From contig JALCBR010000017.1 in the NCBI GenBank assembly GCA_028066245.1, positions 1-55,216 of the forward strand: DNA of 55,216 nucleotides, given 5' to 3'. The DNA is from Pirellulales bacterium. Lineage in GTDB: Bacteria > Planctomycetota > Planctomycetia > Pirellulales > S012-138. Of this stretch, positions 356 through 46,357 are shown piece after piece. Made by a program: the position numbers and the translations under genes. The notes beneath the pieces were generated by a model. It was not told the DNA's origin. It searched no databases and saw only the letters and a list, made by a program, of their open reading frames with translations. Each line of letters opens with the position of its first letter. Position 1 is the stretch's first letter.

Positions 356-2128
356 TCAGTCCCACCACCATTGACCGCGGTCCAGGTTGTTGGGCTCAGT
401 GCGATCCTGGATGCTGGACAGCCGGCCGGAGCTGTCCTGCTCAATGGCGGACGCCTTGACAACTTCACCGGGGCGGAAGGTCACGCCACCGCTGGCCACT
501 GCCAGAACTTGCGTGCGGTTGACGATCTTGTGATTCATGACCGTCTGCACCATCTTGGGCTCGTAGCCCAAGCTAACGGGGAACTTGGCGTCATCGGCAA
601 AGGTTGTCATGTGCCAGCCAACCTGTCCCGGCAGATCCTGTGTGTTGATCAGCGCCGCGACGATGGCCAGGTCAAAGATGTTCTGTAGTTCCGCATACAC
701 AGGGTACTTTTGCGCCATCGCCTCAAAGTGCTTGGTGAAGTTCTCCGCGAAGGCGGCCGTTTCTCGATCGGACTGGCCTGTGTGCACTCGCCGGCCATCA
801 TCAGCGATCATCTCGTTCTCACTCTTGACCATCACGCCCTGGCCGCGAAGTTCATACGCATTCCCGGCTTTGCTGGAGCGAATGGAATCATAGTTGGTGG
901 TGAACCACCACCGCAGCACACCCATCGGTGGAGCGGCTTCGCCGGGCTTCACTTTGACCATAGAGAGATAACTGGGGACGCCAGCGGCGCCGGCTTCCAC
1001 GCCGATTCCCGTAAGCTTCATTCGGTAATCCGCTTCAAACAAAACGCGTGCGACGTGCGTGCGAGGATCGACTCCGTAGAATTCGATTTCTTGCTCGGCA
1101 AGCTGATCGCGAATGCCTTTGAGCCAGCGGTTAGTCTGACCTGGACGAAGCGGACGCCGGGAGGACTCTGCGATATAAGCCTTCGTGCGGGCGAGGTGCT
1201 CTTGGATCGGTGTGATCGAGCAGCCGAAGTTCTTGTCGCCATCGGCCATTTCCCGCAGCACAACCAGCAAATCATCCAGACGCAAAACCGGGCGTCCTGT
1301 GGCTGTGCCAATGACGCGGCCTTCGGCATCGCTGTGCCAATCGCTGGCCGATCCGGCGATGACGATGTCACCGGTCTCTGGATAGGTGAAGACATACTCA
1401 ATCTTTTGCAAGCCAGCGAGGAACTGCATCTCCTCGTCAATGGGCTCACCCAACGCAAGTTTCAACTGAATGGCCCGCTCCAAACGCGTGAGCGAGACTT
1501 TGCGGAGCAGAGATTCATCGTGAACGCTGCCGATACGCTGGCTGCGGGCAGCGGCGTCTCGCAACAGGCTCAAAGAGTTGTCCTGGTCTTTGTTGATGAG
1601 CGATTCAACCAATCCCTCAGCATCGACGCGAACACCACCACCACCTTGGAATTGCTCAACTTGTCCGTTGCCGGTGCCATCGTCCAGCCAGCCGTTGCCA
1701 TCAGAAGCGCCGGTTGTGGAGGTAATCAAATTGATCAAATCACCAAAGTTGGCCTGATTTCCGCCAGCAGCGCCACCCGATCTTGAACCGCGAGTTGAGC
1801 GATCCGCAGGCTGGGTTCCAAGTGGTTGCGCGAGGATCTCCGCAAAAGAATGCGCGCGACTGAGATCATTGCTGACCTCGGCCAATGTTGTCAGAGACTG
1901 TTTCCGCATGCCGGCGGCAGCTTGCGCCTCGGCGATCTTGGAGAGCATTGCATCGCGGAACGCGGGTTCCGCAGCATTCGCCATGGCCATCGCCGGAGCG
2001 AATTCCCCGGCACGAAGGTGTGCCTGGAACGCATCCTCATCCATCCCCAGGGACACCGCTGGAAAAGCGAGTGCGACTCCGAGGGCGGCGAGAATCGCCA
2101 CGGAAAGTTTGGAGCGGAATTGCCTCAT
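356..2128 (-). CDS. DUF1598 secreted protein
   Basis: This 590-residue protein starts with a clear signal peptide (about residues 1-29, basic start then an Ala/Leu/Val core). A Gly/Asn-rich low-complexity stretch follows near residues 110-165. The conserved part, about residues 235-500, carries the planctomycete signature of YVFTYPETGDIVIAG, then GVDPRTHVARVLFEADYR and a WWFTTNY motif, which I recognise as DUF1598. Its biochemical role is not known; export points to the cell envelope. The start is well supported by GAGGAG 8-9 bases upstream. It is transcribed alone and ends at the shared terminator at 287-327. Confidence 0.85.
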   Translation of the reverse strand: MRQFRSKLSVAILAALGVALAFPAVSLGMDEDAFQAHLRAGEFAPAMAMANAAEPAFRDAMLSKIAEAQAAAGMRKQSLTTLAEVSNDLSRAHSFAEILAQPLGTQPADRSTRGSRSGGAAGGNQANFGDLINLITSTTGASDGNGWLDDGTGNGQVEQFQGGGGVRVDAEGLVESLINKDQDNSLSLLRDAAARSQRIGSVHDESLLRKVSLTRLERAIQLKLALGEPIDEEMQFLAGLQKIEYVFTYPETGDIVIAGSASDWHSDAEGRVIGTATGRPVLRLDDLLVVLREMADGDKNFGCSITPIQEHLARTKAYIAESSRRPLRPGQTNRWLKGIRDQLAEQEIEFYGVDPRTHVARVLFEADYRMKLTGIGVEAGAAGVPSYLSMVKVKPGEAAPPMGVLRWWFTTNYDSIRSSKAGNAYELRGQGVMVKSENEMIADDGRRVHTGQSDRETAAFAENFTKHFEAMAQKYPVYAELQNIFDLAIVAALINTQDLPGQVGWHMTTFADDAKFPVSLGYEPKMVQTVMNHKIVNRTQVLAVASGGVTFRPGEVVKASAIEQDSSGRLSSIQDRTEPNNLDRGQWWWD

Positions 2129-37814: not shown

Positions 37815-37852
37815 GAAAAACTCCCAGGTTGATCTTTTGACCAACCTGAGGG
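37815..37852 (-). terminator. terminator after the thioredoxin-fusion gene
   Basis: CAGGTTG and its complement (about 37824-37830 and 37842-37848), extended by a G-T and a C-G pair, form a hairpin with an 11-base loop. Read on the minus strand it is followed by GGGAGTTTTT. It lies about 45 bases after the minus-strand stop at 37896. A T-run on the plus side (37856-37860) makes it weakly two-way. Confidence 0.7.
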
Positions 37853-37895: not shown

Positions 37896-40046
37896 TTACT
37901 TGCCGTCTCCCGGAGACAAAGGGAATTCAAAACTTGTTTGAATGCCTTCCGCATACCTGGACTCATGCTTGCGTTGTAGGTCCTTGATTGTCTTCGCGAT
38001 CGCCGCATGCCCTGCTGGAGTTTGGCAGACCACGATGCACTTGGCTTCCGCGAATGGCACAATCTTGCCATGGCCGCCATCATCTGCCCAAGTACCAGGA
38101 CAGCAGGCTTGAATTGCGTTGCAATACTCGTCAATCATTGGCACGGTGCACACATTCAGTAGCCCTAAGTGCGCCAATCCCGGAAGCACGGGCACCTCAT
38201 CGCGTTTGCCCCCATCAACTTGATAAACGCGGACGATGTACGAACTGCTTTCTGGGTTGTCAGTTTGCTTGGCTTGGGCAGCCTCACAGCAGGAGCGATC
38301 GCCTTGATGGGCGCTCACATTCAGGAACAACTCGAATTCCTCATCACCAACTGACCATGGTATGGCGATTGTCTCACCCTGCCTGCAGACGGCCTCGCCA
38401 CAGGGCTTTTTGCTTTCTTGTGTGTTGAACAGCTTGAGGGCCACTGCGTTGGGCGCCTTCGGCATCGATTGGACCTCAAGACCCGCAAAGAAGCACGGGC
38501 CGTTTTGAAAGCCGACTTCTACACAGGCCCGCTGATGCTCAACGGTCACCAAATGAGGTCGACTAACAACCTCCTCGCCGTCTTTGAGCGTCATGTCAAT
38601 GTGGAACGTTTTCTTCACTGGAACACCTTGGGCAGCCGGTAAAGGTAGCGGAGGTGACGCATGCTGTTGCGGGTTGACCTGCTTAATGGATGTCGCCTGC
38701 GGTAGCGGAGTTCCCGGGTATGGCAACTCCACAGGGTGGGGAAACACGGTCGCGCGAGTCGCGGAGATCTCGTGCACCGGGCTTTCGGCCAATCTCTCTT
38801 CCGTCACGGAAAGGCATTCCACGTTGTGTCGCGGAATCCAATGCTTCGTCCCGTTTTCCTTGACGATGATGAAATCGTCCGTCATCCGCACGAATTCCCC
38901 TGCGTAACTGTGACGCTCGCCCTGGGTTGTGACAACGCAGTAGGCGCCAGTCGGCGGAGTTTCTTCACTGGGATTGATCGTGTGAGGACGAAACGCAGGC
39001 GAGGCGATGAGTTTCGAGTTGCTCGATGAGGTAGTCGGCAGGGATTTCGAATGCCACGTCCTGACCAGGTTGTGTGCAGGATGGCGAACAACAACGGCTG
39101 TAAGGTTTTTCGACGGAGAAAAAGGGCATTGGTCGTGTGCAGGGCAGCTGTCTGAAGCGGGACACTCGGCCGTAGGCCATTTTTCCACGGCCGAAGCTAT
39201 CGATGTCACCGATTGACACTCCGATGGCTTTACCGGGCGATGCTCATCGATCAACTGCATCAGGCCATTAAGCGCCACTTCGCACTCTGATGCGGCACCC
39301 CGCTCTGGCTGATCGCTGGGTTTGCTGATGACACGTGTTTCGGCAATGCCACCATCGACCTTCGTACCTTCACATTCCAAGCGGATCTGTCCACCATCAT
39401 CCTGCAAGCGAATGGACCTCGCTCTGATGACCAGCGGCTTCCCGGCGATCGTCAGTACGACGCGGCTGTCGCCTTGGCCCTTCACTTGGGTGCTGTGCTT
39501 CTTGCCTTGAATCCGTTTATGGATGGTGAATTTGGGAGAGGTCACCGTGTAAGTAGCCACAGCATTGGCTTGCGTGTTGGTCTTGGCGACCTCCTTGACC
39601 GTGGCAATCAACTTGTCCTTGTCCGTAAGCCCAGTAACCTTTTTGATGATCTTTCCATCCGCGCTAACGAAGATCTGCGTTGGAATGGCGCTGACCTCGA
39701 ATTTCTTTGCCGTTTCTTGATCTTCGTCAATATTGATGGCGATCACTTTGCAGGCAGCTTTCAGGCATTTGGCAACGTCATGATCAGCCATCGTTTCCTT
39801 CATGGCCTTGCACGGTGCGCACCACGGCGCGGAGAAGGAGTACATCACCACCTTCTTCTTGTACTCGCCGCACGACTTGCAGGCTTTGTCCGTTACCACC
39901 TGTGCAGCAGCAGTCTCGCACAACGGGCAAGCGGCTGTCGCCTGGACAGAGCACTTCGCAGAAGTCGCTTCTCCTGGCTCCGCCTGTTGGGCATGCGCCA
40001 TCGTGGGGGCGAGTGCGCAGATGATGAACATCACGAGTTTTCGCAT
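37896..40046 (-). CDS. secreted thioredoxin-fold fusion protein with secretin-N-like end
   Basis: From ATG 40046 (AAGGAG 6 bases upstream) the protein has 716 residues. It has a signal peptide (1-20), a Cys-rich lead (Cys32, 40, 43, 56, 59), then a thioredoxin domain with SAPWCAPCK (redox Cys76 and Cys79) to about 160. The middle is Cys/His/Pro-rich with repeated YCVVTTQGERHSYAGEF-like beta segments. The last 90 residues (GTWADDGGHGKIVPFAEAKC, then IVVCQTPAGHAAIAKTIKDL) match a pattern I associate with planctomycete secretin-linked N-domains (SWxxxGGxGxIxPF...VVxQT...H..IA..L). It is divergent from the secretin gene. A role in disulfide chemistry of envelope proteins is likely. Confidence 0.75.
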   Translation of the reverse strand: MRKLVMFIICALAPTMAHAQQAEPGEATSAKCSVQATAACPLCETAAAQVVTDKACKSCGEYKKKVVMYSFSAPWCAPCKAMKETMADHDVAKCLKAACKVIAINIDEDQETAKKFEVSAIPTQIFVSADGKIIKKVTGLTDKDKLIATVKEVAKTNTQANAVATYTVTSPKFTIHKRIQGKKHSTQVKGQGDSRVVLTIAGKPLVIRARSIRLQDDGGQIRLECEGTKVDGGIAETRVISKPSDQPERGAASECEVALNGLMQLIDEHRPVKPSECQSVTSIASAVEKWPTAECPASDSCPAHDQCPFSPSKNLTAVVVRHPAHNLVRTWHSKSLPTTSSSNSKLIASPAFRPHTINPSEETPPTGAYCVVTTQGERHSYAGEFVRMTDDFIIVKENGTKHWIPRHNVECLSVTEERLAESPVHEISATRATVFPHPVELPYPGTPLPQATSIKQVNPQQHASPPLPLPAAQGVPVKKTFHIDMTLKDGEEVVSRPHLVTVEHQRACVEVGFQNGPCFFAGLEVQSMPKAPNAVALKLFNTQESKKPCGEAVCRQGETIAIPWSVGDEEFELFLNVSAHQGDRSCCEAAQAKQTDNPESSSYIVRVYQVDGGKRDEVPVLPGLAHLGLLNVCTVPMIDEYCNAIQACCPGTWADDGGHGKIVPFAEAKCIVVCQTPAGHAAIAKTIKDLQRKHESRYAEGIQTSFEFPLSPGDGK

Positions 40047-40598: not shown

Positions 40599-43500
40599 AT
40601 GTTACGGCAAGCCATTGCGGCGACGATCGTTCTCTGCTTCGTCTGTGCGACGGTCAAGGCGCAGACCGGAGATGAATCCTTGCGTGACTACGCCGTCACG
40701 CACGCTCCCGCGCAAGAAGCGGAAGCAGCGCTGCAAGCGATGCTTGCCCAGCTGAATGTTCCGGGACGTGTGATGGCTGACCCGGAGCGGAACCGCTTGA
40801 TGGTCCAAGGCGGAGACAACATCCACCGCTTTGTCGAGCAGTACCTTCTGAGCCAGTCTGCTGTGGGGACCAACCAGCGTGAACAACACGCCGCGCCGGC
40901 TCAGCAACCATCCTTGCCAAGGGCGGTCAACTACCCGACTGTCCCGCAGCAATCAAGCCATCAACGTCAACCAACCTTAGCCCCCAGCCAGAGCCAATCG
41001 CATTCAGGTGAGACTTCAGGTCTGCTGACAAAGACATATGACGTCGCTCCCGAAGCTCTGGAAGCAACAGTTCAGCATCTCAAGCGTCACTACGCGCAGG
41101 CCCCTAGCGTTCGATTAGCTTCGATCGCCGAAACGGCGACGCTCATCGTCGTTGCACCGGCCGATATGCACGGAGATATCGCCGGGCAGATCGCCCAAGC
41201 TCTCACTCAGCCTGAGGAGTACCGTATTGTCTCCCAGGGCTTGGAGCCGCGCCAACCTGAAATCAACACACAACAAACGCAGTGGGACCTGCGGGCTCCC
41301 GATCAAACTCCGCGTTACCAACAATACGCCAAGGAAGCTCAGCAGTTTGAAAACAATGTGAAGCCAAACGGTGTTCAGCCTGTGCCCGCTGGCCCAAGAA
41401 TCAACCAGAGCCATCAGTACGTCCCTAGAGACGGCCAGGTTATGCAAGCGACGTTGGGGCATCTGGGAATTCAAACGGATCAAGGGCTTGGCTTGGAGTT
41501 GAAGACTCCAGCACCTGTCATCATCGGCGCGTTGCGACAAGGGTTGGGTGACCAGATTTCGCAGCACCCATTTGAAGGCGATCCCGCGGGTGCGATTTTC
41601 ACGATCTACCTCAGCGAAGAGTATGGATCGATCCGCTTGGACTGGAACACGCGCAGCAACAAAGTTGTCGTCCGTGGCTACCCCCAGATGCAAGAACGCA
41701 TGGCGCGATTGCTGACAACGCTCGACAGCCAGCAAGCATTGGAAAATGGCGAAATCCGCTTTACGTCTTTGCGAAACGCCAACCCCAAGACGGTGATGCA
41801 ACTCGTGCGAGCGGTCCAGCGTGAGCAGAGTGGCGCACGTCCCACAGCCAACAGCAACTACATGGTCGGCAATTTGTTCTATCGACGGCAACCCCAGGGA
41901 CAACCGCAACCAGGATCGCCTCAGAATCAAGATGGGCAGGTAGGACAACCGAACGGCCAAAGTTTGTTTCAGCCGGCCCCATTGGCGGGCGCAAACCCAC
42001 AACGTCCCGTTCGTGCGGAAGTCATCGAAGGGATCGGTATTGTCCTGACAGGAACGGAACAAGACCTAGAACAACTCATGGCTCTGATCGATCAGATTGT
42101 CGCAGAAAGCGAACTTTCCGAACCGCTCGTCGAATCCTACTTGCTACGGCATGTTGACAGCTCCTCGCTGGCAGACGTCGTGCAAGACATCTACGACACG
42201 ACTTACGCTGTCCGTCGCGGACCTGTGACGATCACGCCCTTCGTTAACCCGAATTCGCTGCTAATCATCGGGCAGGAAGGGGCTGTGGATCAAGCTAAGG
42301 AACTGATCCGCCGTTTGGATCAGCGCGGCTCACCAGGCGCTCAATTCCGAGTCTTCAAGTTGAAGAACGCAAACGCTGTCAACGTACAAGCCGCAATCAC
42401 ACAGCTCTACCCCACCGGTCAAAACCCAGCCACGCTGGAACCACAGGTCGTGGTGATTGCAGATGATCGTTCTAACACGCTTGTCGTCCGGGCCAGCCAG
42501 CGGGACTTGTTGGAAGTTGAACAGCTGATTCTTGAACTTGATGTCCCCGAAGGGGAGTTCGACTTGGAACTGAGAATTTTTCCGCTGCGAAATTCGCAAG
42601 CTCTGGACCTGATCGAGGTCCTGCAACAAGTGATCGTCGGCGACGCTGACGTAGGCTTTGGCAGCGGGGGGCAGACGCCTGCCAGCATCGTGATCAAGCA
42701 ATTTGACGCTCAGAACCGCATTGTCGATGAGATTCGTTCAGGAATCTTGAGTGACGTCCGCATTACCGCAGATCCACGAGCCAATACGCTTGTTGTGGCT
42801 GCTCCTGCTGGAGCGATGGACTTGATCGCCCAGCTGATCTTTGAACTGGATGCTGAGTCCGGTGTTGTCGCGGACATCAAAGTCTTCCCGGTGATCAACG
42901 GGGACGCTTCGGCCCTCGTCGAGATGCTGCGAACACTCTTTGGCCAGCAGGCGACACAGGGCGGAGGCTTTGGGGGGCAAACGGTTATTGCCAGTGCGAC
43001 AGCAGGAATTGTACCGTTGCGGCTATCCGTGGATGTACGGACTAACAGTATTGTGGCCGCAGGAAGTCCAGGCGATCTGCAGATTGTGGAAGCGATCCTC
43101 GCCAACCTGGACCTGGACGACATCGCCGACAGGCGTACTGACGTGGTCCGCTTGAAAAATGTGCCGGCGATTGATATTTCCAACGCGATCACGTCCATCC
43201 TCCAGACGGAAGCCGATCTGCTGGGTGACCAGGTTGCCTTCCAAGCTCTCCAGCAGCAAGTGATTGTTGTTCCGGAAGCAATCACCAATACGTTGATTGT
43301 CACTTCCACGGACCGGTACCGTGACCAAATTTTACAGATCGTGGAGACTCTGGATCGGGAACCGCCAATGGTTATGATCCAAGTCTTGATTGCCGAAGTC
43401 GCGCTCAACAACACCGATGAGTTTGGCGTTGAACTCGGCTTACAGGATTCACTGCTGTTCGACCGCAGCCTGTTGGGAGATTTGGTCACGACAACGAACA

Positions 43501-44942
43501 CGATCCAGACAAACAATGGCGGCGCTGTCATCACGGATACGCAACAGATCATCCAAGGTGCCAGTAACACACCTGGTTTTGCCTTTGGCAATCCGACAAC
43601 ACCGCTCCCGAACTCGGGGAGTGACCTCGCGCTCAGCACTGCAGGTAACGTGGGCACCCAAGGACTGACGAGTTTCTCAGTGGGCCGGATCAACAATGAA
43701 CTTGGCTACGGCGGCTTGGTGCTGTCCGCCAGCAGCGAGAGCGTCAGCGTGTTAGTCCGGGCTCTGCAAGAAAGCCGTCGGTTGGACGTTATCAGCCGTC
43801 CGCAAATTCAGACATTGGATAACCAGCCAGCCTTCGTGCAAGTTGGCCAGCGCGTGCAACTGCCCACGGGATCAACGCTCGATCCGCAGACAGGTGTCAC
43901 AACGGTCCAAGTCGGGGCGGCGGAAAACGTGGGTATCATTCTCGGCGTCACGCCGCGAATCTCGATCGGCGACTTAACCACGCCAGCGGATGACCAGATC
44001 GTCATGCAAATCGACGTTGAGAAATCCGAAGTCGGGCCGGAGTCAGAGGGAACGCCACTTTCCATTAACGCACAGGGTGACGTGCTTCGCAGCCCTCGGA
44101 TCAATACGGTCACCGCCCAAACGACGCTCAGCGGTGTTGACGGGCAGACGATCGTTCTGGGCGGTTTGATTACGAAGTCGGAAACCAAAGTTCACCGGCG
44201 AGTGCCAGTGTTGGCTTCTGTGCCGGTGTTGGGGCACTTGTTCCGCTATGACCTCAAGTCCGTTCGTAAGACGGAACTGATGATCATCCTCACCCCGCGA
44301 ATCGTCCGCTCGGAGGAAGAAACGGAGTACTTGAAGCGTATGGAAACCGCACGGATGAGTTGGGTCTTATCAGATGTGACCAAAATCCATGGCGGCGATG
44401 GACTGTATTCGCGCTACGAACCGTGGGGCGATCCGAGTTGCGTGGTCTACCCCGATCTGAACCCCGATGGCTTTTTGTCGCCAGTGGAAGGTACGCAGGG
44501 CACTCCTGTCCCAATGAACAGACCTGACGGACAGCCTTTGCAACACCCCCCAGGCGGTGAACAGGCACCCGGCCCGCCGCAGGACGGCTTCCTGAACTTC
44601 CAGGGTGTTGACAGCGGAATTCAGCAAACGAGCTATTACCAGGGTGGACTCAACCCGCCCTGGCGTGGTGGCTACGATCAACAACAGCCGCCGATGCAGG
44701 GAATTCAACCAGGCAGGCAGGATATTCAGCGCAGCCCGAATCGCTACGCACCCGTGCAGTTTGATCGGCGTGATGATCCACGCTCTACTCGGCCAATGAA
44801 ACTGGGAGTCCGGCCGGGCGCGCGGCAGGATGTTCAGCGCACCCCGAATGGCTACATACCTGTGCAGTTCGATCCGCACAGCTATCCGCGATACGCTCCC
44901 ACGCCGTACTGGCGAACGGGTGCTCTGCGCGTCAACCGTTAG
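40599..44942 (+). CDS. very long secretin (GspD/PilQ-like) with many N-domains
   Basis: From ATG 40599 (GAGG 8 bases upstream) the product has 1447 residues; a TTG at 40566 with the stronger GGAGGGAGG 5 bases upstream would add 11. A signal peptide (1-22) precedes a Gln/Pro-rich stretch. At least six secretin N1-like modules follow (each ending like SNTLVVRASQRDLLEVEQLI). The secretin channel domain, about 1000-1265, shows VISRPQIQTLDNQPAFVQVG, TVTAQTTLSGVDGQTIVLGG and VPVLGHLF. A 150-residue Pro/Gln/Gly tail ends it. GspD usually has about 650 residues and three or four N-domains. It should form a large outer-membrane pore; no GspE/F-type genes are nearby. Confidence 0.93.
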   Translation: MLRQAIAATIVLCFVCATVKAQTGDESLRDYAVTHAPAQEAEAALQAMLAQLNVPGRVMADPERNRLMVQGGDNIHRFVEQYLLSQSAVGTNQREQHAAPAQQPSLPRAVNYPTVPQQSSHQRQPTLAPSQSQSHSGETSGLLTKTYDVAPEALEATVQHLKRHYAQAPSVRLASIAETATLIVVAPADMHGDIAGQIAQALTQPEEYRIVSQGLEPRQPEINTQQTQWDLRAPDQTPRYQQYAKEAQQFENNVKPNGVQPVPAGPRINQSHQYVPRDGQVMQATLGHLGIQTDQGLGLELKTPAPVIIGALRQGLGDQISQHPFEGDPAGAIFTIYLSEEYGSIRLDWNTRSNKVVVRGYPQMQERMARLLTTLDSQQALENGEIRFTSLRNANPKTVMQLVRAVQREQSGARPTANSNYMVGNLFYRRQPQGQPQPGSPQNQDGQVGQPNGQSLFQPAPLAGANPQRPVRAEVIEGIGIVLTGTEQDLEQLMALIDQIVAESELSEPLVESYLLRHVDSSSLADVVQDIYDTTYAVRRGPVTITPFVNPNSLLIIGQEGAVDQAKELIRRLDQRGSPGAQFRVFKLKNANAVNVQAAITQLYPTGQNPATLEPQVVVIADDRSNTLVVRASQRDLLEVEQLILELDVPEGEFDLELRIFPLRNSQALDLIEVLQQVIVGDADVGFGSGGQTPASIVIKQFDAQNRIVDEIRSGILSDVRITADPRANTLVVAAPAGAMDLIAQLIFELDAESGVVADIKVFPVINGDASALVEMLRTLFGQQATQGGGFGGQTVIASATAGIVPLRLSVDVRTNSIVAAGSPGDLQIVEAILANLDLDDIADRRTDVVRLKNVPAIDISNAITSILQTEADLLGDQVAFQALQQQVIVVPEAITNTLIVTSTDRYRDQILQIVETLDREPPMVMIQVLIAEVALNNTDEFGVELGLQDSLLFDRSLLGDLVTTTNTIQTNNGGAVITDTQQIIQGASNTPGFAFGNPTTPLPNSGSDLALSTAGNVGTQGLTSFSVGRINNELGYGGLVLSASSESVSVLVRALQESRRLDVISRPQIQTLDNQPAFVQVGQRVQLPTGSTLDPQTGVTTVQVGAAENVGIILGVTPRISIGDLTTPADDQIVMQIDVEKSEVGPESEGTPLSINAQGDVLRSPRINTVTAQTTLSGVDGQTIVLGGLITKSETKVHRRVPVLASVPVLGHLFRYDLKSVRKTELMIILTPRIVRSEEETEYLKRMETARMSWVLSDVTKIHGGDGLYSRYEPWGDPSCVVYPDLNPDGFLSPVEGTQGTPVPMNRPDGQPLQHPPGGEQAPGPPQDGFLNFQGVDSGIQQTSYYQGGLNPPWRGGYDQQQPPMQGIQPGRQDIQRSPNRYAPVQFDRRDDPRSTRPMKLGVRPGARQDVQRTPNGYIPVQFDPHSYPRYAPTPYWRTGALRVNR
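44717..44874 (+). repeat. two copies of a 36-residue coding repeat
   Basis: Within the secretin tail, 44717-44766 recurs at 44825-44874 with about 80 percent identity, offset 108 bases. The encoded segments read QDIQRSPNRYAPVQFD and QDVQRTPNGYIPVQFD. Confidence 0.75.
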
Positions 44943-45028
44943 TTCTTCTTCTTCGCGGCTTGCGCTCACGCAGAACTGACTGGGCGCGATCGTCCGACGA
45001 TGGATTTTTTCCAGCAAGGGAATGCAAG

Positions 45029-46357
45029 ATGCGCTGCAACACAAATAGCCAGACTCCGCGAACCACCACAGCGCGGCTACTGACTTGGTCACTGTGCGGT
45101 CTGTGGATGGCGACAGCATTGGGTTGCTCTTCCGGTTTCGATATGCGCAAGAACATTCCGTGGCCCGAGCTGGTGAACTTCGACGAACCCAAGACGCCAC
45201 TTAAGATGGTCGCAATGTGGCAGGAGACCGTGAAGCACCAGGAAGGAAAACCAGCCATTCGAGGATTCGGCGGGCGTGTGCTGTTCTATGCGTCCGACGA
45301 TACCAAACCCATCAAAGTCGATGGTGACTTCGATGTCTTTGCTTTCGTGGAAAGTGGAAACAAACAAGACGAACATAAGCCGGATCGCAAGTTTGTTTTC
45401 ACACGAGATAAGCTGGAATCTCACTACAGCAAGAACAAGCTGGGGCACACGTATAGCTTCTGGCTGCCGTGGGAACCTGTGGGCGGAGAGACGTTACAGA
45501 TCACATTGATCGCCCGATTCACGCCTGTAACCGGCGGTGGCACCGTCACAAGTGAGCAGAATCGATACTTGTTGCCTGGTTTGGACCCGTTTGAAGGGTC
45601 CCCTCCAGATACGAGCTACAATGAATTCCGCAATCAGACCGGTACAAGTCCAGATATCACTCAGATTGGCTATTTTGGGAATGACAGCATGAGGGGGCGG
45701 TCACACCCAATTTCACGCAACAGTCAGCCGCGAACTATCCAGATGCCGCGGCTCAATCCGGCATCGGAATTCGGCTATCGCATGTCACATCCAACCTCTG
45801 CCGGGCAAACCCAAGGTCAGAGCGCACATGTGACAGCTCCTGGCCAAAGGTTCGATTACTTACCACCTCAGCAAGCACATCAACAACTGGCAGAGTTAAG
45901 CAACATCGTGCAACCAAGGGACACGGGCGCGATGCAACAGATGCCACATTCTCGCCCGGAATACTCCAACGCTCCGGAAGAGAGCGCCGCGGCTCCGTCC
46001 TTAAGCGCGGCGTTTTCCAGGTTCAATCAAGACCGGTGGGCGCGATATGCTAACGCGGGAAACGCTGCCGGGAGAACGTTGGGACAAGTCCCTCAGGCAA
46101 ACCACCAGCCGACCCAGCTTCCGCAGAACCAGCAGCAGGTGGGACCTGATTCATTTGAGGAGTTTGGCCCTGTGTCCGGAGGTTGGACGACGTCGACGTT
46201 CCTGAATGATCCACGGCAGCCTCCGAGTCAATTACTTCCAGGCGGTTTTCAACCTCCCAGACTCCCGGCTCAAGCAAGGCCATTCTCTCGGCCAACTTTC
46301 GATCAGCAATGGTCGCCACCTTCCCTTCCAGGACAACTCGCGAGCCCACAATTCTAG
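45029..46357 (+). CDS. lipoprotein encoded after the secretin
   Basis: From ATG 45029 (AAGGGA 7 bases upstream) it has 442 residues with a lipoprotein signal ending at Cys33 (TALGCSSG). The conserved domain, about 34-200 (KNIPWPELVNFDEPKTPLKM, then VDGDFDVFAFVES and LGHTYSFWLPWEPVGGETLQ), is a beta-rich fold I do not know by name. The rest is Pro/Gln/Ser-rich. It starts 86 bases behind the secretin and is probably in the same transcript, so it may be a secretin pilot or accessory protein; pilotins are lipoproteins too. Its last 308 bases overlap the BON gene on the other strand. Confidence 0.78.
   Translation: MRCNTNSQTPRTTTARLLTWSLCGLWMATALGCSSGFDMRKNIPWPELVNFDEPKTPLKMVAMWQETVKHQEGKPAIRGFGGRVLFYASDDTKPIKVDGDFDVFAFVESGNKQDEHKPDRKFVFTRDKLESHYSKNKLGHTYSFWLPWEPVGGETLQITLIARFTPVTGGGTVTSEQNRYLLPGLDPFEGSPPDTSYNEFRNQTGTSPDITQIGYFGNDSMRGRSHPISRNSQPRTIQMPRLNPASEFGYRMSHPTSAGQTQGQSAHVTAPGQRFDYLPPQQAHQQLAELSNIVQPRDTGAMQQMPHSRPEYSNAPEESAAAPSLSAAFSRFNQDRWARYANAGNAAGRTLGQVPQANHQPTQLPQNQQQVGPDSFEEFGPVSGGWTTSTFLNDPRQPPSQLLPGGFQPPRLPAQARPFSRPTFDQQWSPPSLPGQLASPQF

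What the first reader, a model, noticed from the sequence alone, without database searches (positions are those of the whole stretch)
37896..40046. Thioredoxin protein ending in a secretin-N-like module, divergent from the secretin
The C-terminus (GGHGKIVPFAEAKC, then VVCQTPAGHAAIAKTIKDL) follows the same planctomycete pattern found in secretin-associated proteins, and the gene shares its control region with the secretin. A disulfide-handling factor built to dock on the secretin ring would be new to me. The central Cys-rich part adds to this idea.
Basis: partly seen in the sequence, partly recalled or inferred. Interest (0 to 1): 0.6.

Follow-up and report, generated by a model that had tools for sequence, protein, structure and literature searches.

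The report
Exported thioredoxin with secretin-like tail
A planctomycete bacterium makes an exported thioredoxin that carries, at its far end, a small domain like the ones stacked in bacterial outer-membrane secretion gates; relatives elsewhere join the same parts, some of them with gate domains in the same chain, but nothing ties this protein to the particular gate gene beside it.

Summary
The gene is real (716 aa, signal peptide, WCAPC thioredoxin). Its last ~90 residues are a genuine secretin-N-like module: 33 such modules match 88 planctomycete Secretin_N repeats at hhalign probability 93% (best of 300 column shuffles 1.6%), and the predicted fold is closest to secretin N domains. The divergent pair is not conserved: 0 of 11 secretin loci with at least 3.6 kb upstream have a thioredoxin or P0001 relative there. 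The module is not secretin-specific: it is near-universal in the order (115 of 117 genomes) and is also fused to serpin, VWA, DUF1559 and DUF1598 proteins. However, thioredoxin plus this module recurs: seven other planctomycete genomes encode such fusions, two with Pfam Secretin domains in the same chain; the five whose upstream sequence is held follow a BlaR1-type M56 peptidase gene. P0001 has no full-length relative in any search and looks like a separate fusion. Best reading: an exported thiol-disulfide enzyme positioned by an N1-like adaptor on a module-bearing partner, not specifically on the neighbouring secretin.

The parts
37896..40046 (-). P0001, exported thioredoxin protein, 716 aa
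   Evidence: ORF and translation; AGGAG ribosome site and codon make-up
39987..40046 (-). signal peptide, residues 1-20 (AHA|Q cleavage site read by eye, no tool used)
   Evidence: sequence
39870..39929 (-). Cys pairs CPLC (40-43) and CKSC (56-59); possible metal site by inference
39591..39860 (-). thioredoxin domain, residues 63-152, active site WCAPC 75-79
   Evidence: PF00085 6.2e-15; PDB thioredoxins; pLDDT 94-96 in the blocks from 71 to 150
38784..38984 (-). small five-stranded beta domain, residues about 355-421, no family match
   Evidence: pLDDT 73-94 by blocks of ten from 361 to 420; no Pfam match over a cut-off
38505..38573 (-). residues 492-514, EVVSRPHLVTVEHQRACVEVGFQ, like the conserved core segment of secretin C-domains
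   Evidence: hhalign probability 42 and 60, 23 columns, 0 of 500 shuffles as high in either test
37947..38240 (-). C-terminal secretin-N1-like module, residues about 603-700
37823..37850 (-). terminator-like hairpin just after P0001, 12-pair stem
   Evidence: 2 sites found in the region, 3.2 expected by chance
40602..44942 (+). divergent neighbour: T2SS-type secretin with many Secretin_N repeats
   Evidence: PF00263 2.5e-37, PF03958 2.8e-64; nine repeat hits

Best explanation
P0001 is an exported thiol-disulfide oxidoreductase of the thioredoxin family whose C-terminus is a secretin-N1-like interaction module. Shown: the thioredoxin domain with intact WCAPC and IPT, the N1-like module by profile and predicted fold, and recurrence of the same combination in other Planctomycetes. 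Inferred: the signal peptide delivers it to the periplasm; the thioredoxin is kept reduced by a DsbD-type protein, of which the genome holds one match; the N1-like module positions it on a partner that carries the same kind of module (the module-secretin on contig C146 is one candidate among seven other well scoring module frames of this genome), where it reduces or shuffles disulfides of that partner or of proteins that pass it. It is not specifically the partner of the divergent secretin.
For: Thioredoxin family match. Module: hhalign 93% against Secretin_N with a 300-shuffle control, and 92.9% when only the 22 rows outside the secretin-domain loci are used; the only two PDB sequences found by the A1 profile at E up to 5 are GspD (E 0.018, 0.036); AlphaFold strand/helix order E-H-E-E-H; the first ten Foldseek rows are secretins or needle complexes; VIA-align ranks 1-6 are secretins (rank 2, BfpB, by recall), best Z 7.7. 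Seven other genomes with Trx + module in one frame, two of them with PF00263 in the same chain. DsbD_TM once in the genome. A 23-residue secretin-core-like segment in P0001 itself.
Against: No full-length relative: 0 of 4 other family genomes, only module hits in 396 order genomes, chance-level hits in 397 class genomes. P0001 lacks the STN domain found in six of the seven other Trx fusions and has no M56/BlaI gene in the window. In three of the seven other fusions the thioredoxin has lost one or both active-site Cys (WSSPC, WSRPC, WAAPS), so the domain need not be catalytic there. Z 7.7 is within the range of common folds (note), and no Foldseek E-value is significant. With 33 rows instead of 24 the PDB profile search is weaker (GspD 0.025 and 0.17, then three unrelated names). 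A tail-end N1-like domain as a docking device is inference.
Confidence: 0.4

Rival explanations
1. Ordinary exported thioredoxin that acquired a common planctomycete extracytoplasmic module; the module serves some general role (fold spacer, envelope or self binding) and has nothing to do with secretins.
For: Module in 115 of 117 order genomes, fused to serpins (L145, L147, L150, L175), VWA or VIT/VWA, DUF1559, DUF1598; Trx in 0 of 33 other module frames and in no ORF of the 30 loci.
Against: Recurrent fusion with thioredoxin in seven other genomes, two with Secretin domains in the chain; secretin-core-like segment in P0001.
Confidence: 0.28
2. Redox or ligand sensor of a signalling pathway: by analogy with the Trx/STN/module proteins encoded after BlaI and BlaR1-type M56 genes, P0001 reports the thiol state of the envelope.
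For: M56 gene adjacent in 5 of 5 Trx fusions whose upstream sequence is held, and BlaI in 4 of 4 where it could be seen; CPLC/CKSC pairs in P0001.
Against: No M56 or BlaI in the 55 kb window; no STN in P0001; P0001's thioredoxin does not group with those of the fusions in a poorly resolved tree.
Confidence: 0.17
3. One reading: disulfide factor dedicated to the divergent T2SS-type secretin.
For: Divergent neighbours 555 bases apart; module resembles secretin N domains; the secretin-core-like segment matches this type of secretin.
Against: Secretin and its downstream gene are found together in 15 of 15 loci, but no P0001 or thioredoxin is upstream in 11 of 11 testable loci; the neighbour's repeats match the module model only weakly (best repeat 8.3 bits).
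Confidence: 0.12

Closest known systems
Secretin_N (PF03958) / N1-N2 domains of GspD, XcpQ, PilQ
   Same: profile similarity, predicted E-H-E-E-H order, Z 7.7 to XcpQ N012
   Different: W..GG.G signature, not listed by Pfam for P0001, sits alone at a C-terminus without a secretin domain after it
Thioredoxin PF00085, e.g. Deinococcus Trx2 (7d6l)
   Same: WCxPC, IPT, whole fold; Trx2 proteins also have an N-terminal Cys-pair part (recalled)
   Different: exported, 716 aa, extra middle part and N1-like module
Trx-STN-module proteins of other Planctomycetes (L208, L248, L251-L254, L256)
   Same: thioredoxin N-terminal to the same module
   Different: six of seven have STN; the five with readable upstream sequence lie after an M56 gene; L251 and L252 have Secretin domains; P0001 has none of these
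DsbE/ResA/TlpA-type periplasmic thioredoxins
   Same: exported thioredoxin fold; weak hits (ResA 8.6e-8, TlpA 0.0004, dsbE 0.0012)
   Different: all far below their cut-offs; no such C-terminal module known to me

Membership tests
Thioredoxin (PF00085) | score over Pfam cut-off | tested here: met
   55.5 bits, cut-off 23.5
Thioredoxin (PF00085) | WCxxC active site and cis-Pro segment | tested here: met
   WCAPC 75-79, IPT 121-123 read
Thioredoxin TIGR01068 (equivalog) | score over NCBIfam cut-off | tested here: not met
   58.3 bits, cut-off 96.8
Secretin_N (PF03958) | score over Pfam cut-off | tested here: not met
   not listed for P0001 at E up to 1
Secretin_N (PF03958) | profile relationship | tested here: met
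   hhalign 93% with shuffles
Secretin_N (PF03958) | N1/KH-like fold | tested here: inconclusive
   strand/helix order and best Z 7.7 fit, but Z under 8 may be a common arrangement
Secretin (PF00263) | C-domain over Pfam cut-off | tested here: not met
   none in P0001; only a 23-residue likeness
T2SS secretin accessory protein | conserved next to the secretin | tested here: not met
   0 of 11 loci
T2SS secretin accessory protein | physical binding to the secretin | not testable with these tools
   needs experiment
Trx-STN-module class after BlaI/M56 | Trx and module in one chain | tested here: met
Trx-STN-module class after BlaI/M56 | STN domain between them | tested here: not met
   no hit at E up to 10
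Trx-STN-module class after BlaI/M56 | M56/BlaI genes adjacent | tested here: not met
   none in the window

The most novel reading that the evidence does not exclude
Planctomycetes build thiol-redox chemistry into secretin-type rings: thioredoxin, N0/N1-like modules and secretin cores are shuffled into single chains (L251, L252) or separate proteins (P0001), giving redox-set secretin-like channels or sensors, several of them under BlaR1-type control.
Probability: 0.15. Interest if true: 0.75.

Novelty: new variant of a known kind. Interest (0 to 1): 0.48.

Why it matters
Secretin N domains are usually thought of as parts of secretin rings only (recalled). Here an N1-like module is a general planctomycete building block that recurs with thioredoxin in at least eight genomes, P0001's included. 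That makes a clear question testable: does the module recruit enzymes and inhibitors to secretin rings, or is it a free-standing envelope adaptor that secretins share? The BlaI/M56 linkage of some of the fusions offers a genetic handle.

Tried and rejected
Middle region (residues 153-630): no relatives. The class-wide hits at E 0.002-0.008 look like chance: alignments were seen for four of the six and look unrelated; no Pfam match over a cut-off, no sensible PDB match, and for the beta region alone one weak hit of E 0.008 in a frame with two stops among 246 genomes.

Secretin domain of the module-secretins as a match for P0001's beta region: 9 of 200 shuffles as high, rejected; only the core segment of the T2SS-type secretin stood out. 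A scan of P0001 in 110-residue windows showed nothing else above 1%.

Full-length AlphaFold model: mean pLDDT 54; only the thioredoxin, the small beta domain, parts of 521-570 and the module are confident, and Foldseek on it lists only thioredoxin-fold rows in its top 50, so the folds of the middle stay untested. In the VIA-align list metallochaperone and ferredoxin-like rows follow at Z 6 to 7, so fold alone would not decide.

Literature: searches (search listings with titles and abstract starts seen, no paper opened) showed nothing on planctomycete secretin-N modules fused to thioredoxin; most subscription papers are missing from that library.

Dropped rows: L003 (stop inside) was left out of the alignment; the counts leave out the three copies of P0001 itself; the 20 regions were chosen by me from the rows, mostly for covering the thioredoxin part, so 7 of 397 genomes is a lower bound and not a rate. 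In one search only two candidates per genome were scored, three.

Full report
Observation. P0001 (37896-40046, minus) is a real gene: ATG with AGGAG upstream, codon-position GC like its neighbours. Pfam lists thioredoxin-like families only (best PF00085, 6.2e-15, residues 63-152). It has thirty cysteines, with CPLC, CKSC and CAPC. A twelve-pair hairpin follows the stop codon, so it may be a single-gene unit.

The C-terminal module. A search of 396 genomes of the order with residues 153-716 gave, besides the gene itself, 33 places in 32 other genomes; all of them fall in or reach the C-terminal module. Aligned, they share W, GG.G and a hydrophobic strand-helix end; three positions (W70, G74, G75 of the first row) are invariant in 24 rows. 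As a profile of 33 rows it matches 88 Secretin_N repeats taken from related T2SS-type secretins at 93.2% over 55 columns; 300 column shuffles reach at most 1.6%, the reversed profile 0.9%; without P0001 it is 88.8%; with only the 22 rows outside the secretin-domain loci 92.9%; P0001's row alone 22%. A first comparison with the seven repeats of the window secretin alone gave 47% over 34 columns. The PDB profile search with 24 rows gave two hits at E up to 5, both GspD; with 33 rows five hits, the best two GspD (E 0.025, 0.17) and the other three unrelated names. AlphaFold on residues 597-716 gives mean pLDDT 78.7 and the order strand-helix-strand-strand-helix. The first ten Foldseek rows are secretins or needle complexes, none significant by E-value (best 0.093). 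VIA-align ranks 1-6 are secretins (rank 2, BfpB, by recall), best Z 7.7, but unrelated ferredoxin-like rows follow at 6 to 7. Sequence and fold together support the N1-like reading; fold alone would not.

Not secretin-specific. The module model matches 115 of 117 genomes of the order, 1 to 26 places each. Many of the best hits lie in frames of 950-1600 aa; of this size class four were scanned with Pfam (L027, L030, L031 and the own-genome L086) and all four hold PF00263. Other frames are fusions to serpins (L145, L147, L150, L175), VWA or VIT/VWA (L148, L209, L210), DUF1559 (L090) and, with a partial module, DUF1598 (L211); L172 and L197 carry TPRs with alpha-2-macroglobulin traces in frames open at the 5' end. 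Named records with the module are planctomycete by title in 47 of 51 loci; two are titled Candidatus Nealsonbacteria and two only 'bacterium'. In the own genome eight frames score E 2.1e-4 or better, P0001 among them; of the seven others, all scanned with Pfam, only the one on C146 has PF00263.

The pair. The secretin's downstream gene (44960) is found beside it in 15 of 15 fetched secretin loci and the DUF3352 gene in 6 of 15; no piece of P0001 matches anything in these 15 at E 1e-4. Eleven of them have at least 3.6 kb upstream, with varied genes and no frame holding CGPC or CAPC. Only one of these eleven (L092) is from the same family, so a pairing limited to the genus is not excluded. P0001 has no full-length relative in 4 other family genomes, 396 order genomes, 397 class genomes searched with its middle part or in the pattern scan of genome contigs.

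A recurring combination. Testing 51 named module loci for thioredoxin turned up an 865-aa frame in an uncultured Schlesneria (L208) with thioredoxin (3.6e-14) and two modules. A class search with it, and 20 regions chosen from the result, gave six more genomes with thioredoxin and module in one frame: L248, L251, L252, L253, L254, L256. L251 and L252 hold PF00263 (4.1e-14, 4.6e-13) before the thioredoxin, and a secretin-C-like stretch after the module: thioredoxin, module and secretin parts in one chain. Active sites are WCTPC (L208, L253) and WCGPC (L248, L256), but WSSPC, WSRPC and WAAPS in L251, L252 and L254, so the thioredoxin is not catalytic in all. Where upstream sequence is held (L248, L251, L252, L253, L256) an M56 gene is adjacent, with BlaI beside it in the four where it could be seen; Pfam confirms M56 for L248, L251, L252, L256 and BlaI for L248, L252, L256, while L253 rests on models built here. 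The same gene order stands before two module proteins without thioredoxin (L247 and L255). P0001's thioredoxin does not group with those of the fusions in a tree with only 7 of 37 inner branches well supported, which suggests, but does not prove, a separate fusion.

P0001 also has a 23-residue stretch (492-514) like the core segment of secretin C-domains: probability 42% and 60% against two overlapping profiles, 0 of 500 shuffles as high in each. The rest of that region does not align.

Mechanism. Signal peptide, intact WCAPC/IPT and a genome with one DsbD-type match point to an exported disulfide reductase or isomerase; the N1-like module probably positions it on a module-bearing partner. The partner is unknown; the divergent secretin is not favoured. 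Steps shown: domains, module relationship, recurrence of the fusion. Steps inferred: export, activity, docking.

Noticed in passing
L247, L248, L251, L252, L253, L255, L256: BlaI - BlaR1-type M56 peptidase - third gene with N1-like modules, mostly STN, sometimes secretin domains and often thioredoxin: an apparently recurrent signalling cassette in one planctomycete family.
   Followed up: partly
L145:1334-4057, L147:2435-5107, L150:1820-3955, L175:78-2918: N1-like modules fused to complete serpin domains; protease inhibitors with a secretin-type module are odd and unexplained.
   Followed up: partly
L157:2344-5872, L089:6934-8949: Runs of small STN/module-type proteins, four in a row in L157 and two in a row in L089 of the own genome.
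   Followed up: no
window 356-2128 (-): DUF1598 protein with a partial match to the module model (E 3e-5); a DUF1598 frame in L211 also carries a partial module.
   Followed up: no
window 40602-44942 (+): Secretin with about seven to nine Secretin_N repeats, more than I recall for T2SS secretins; its downstream gene 44960-46357 has no Pfam family yet lies beside it in 15 of 15 loci.
   Followed up: partly
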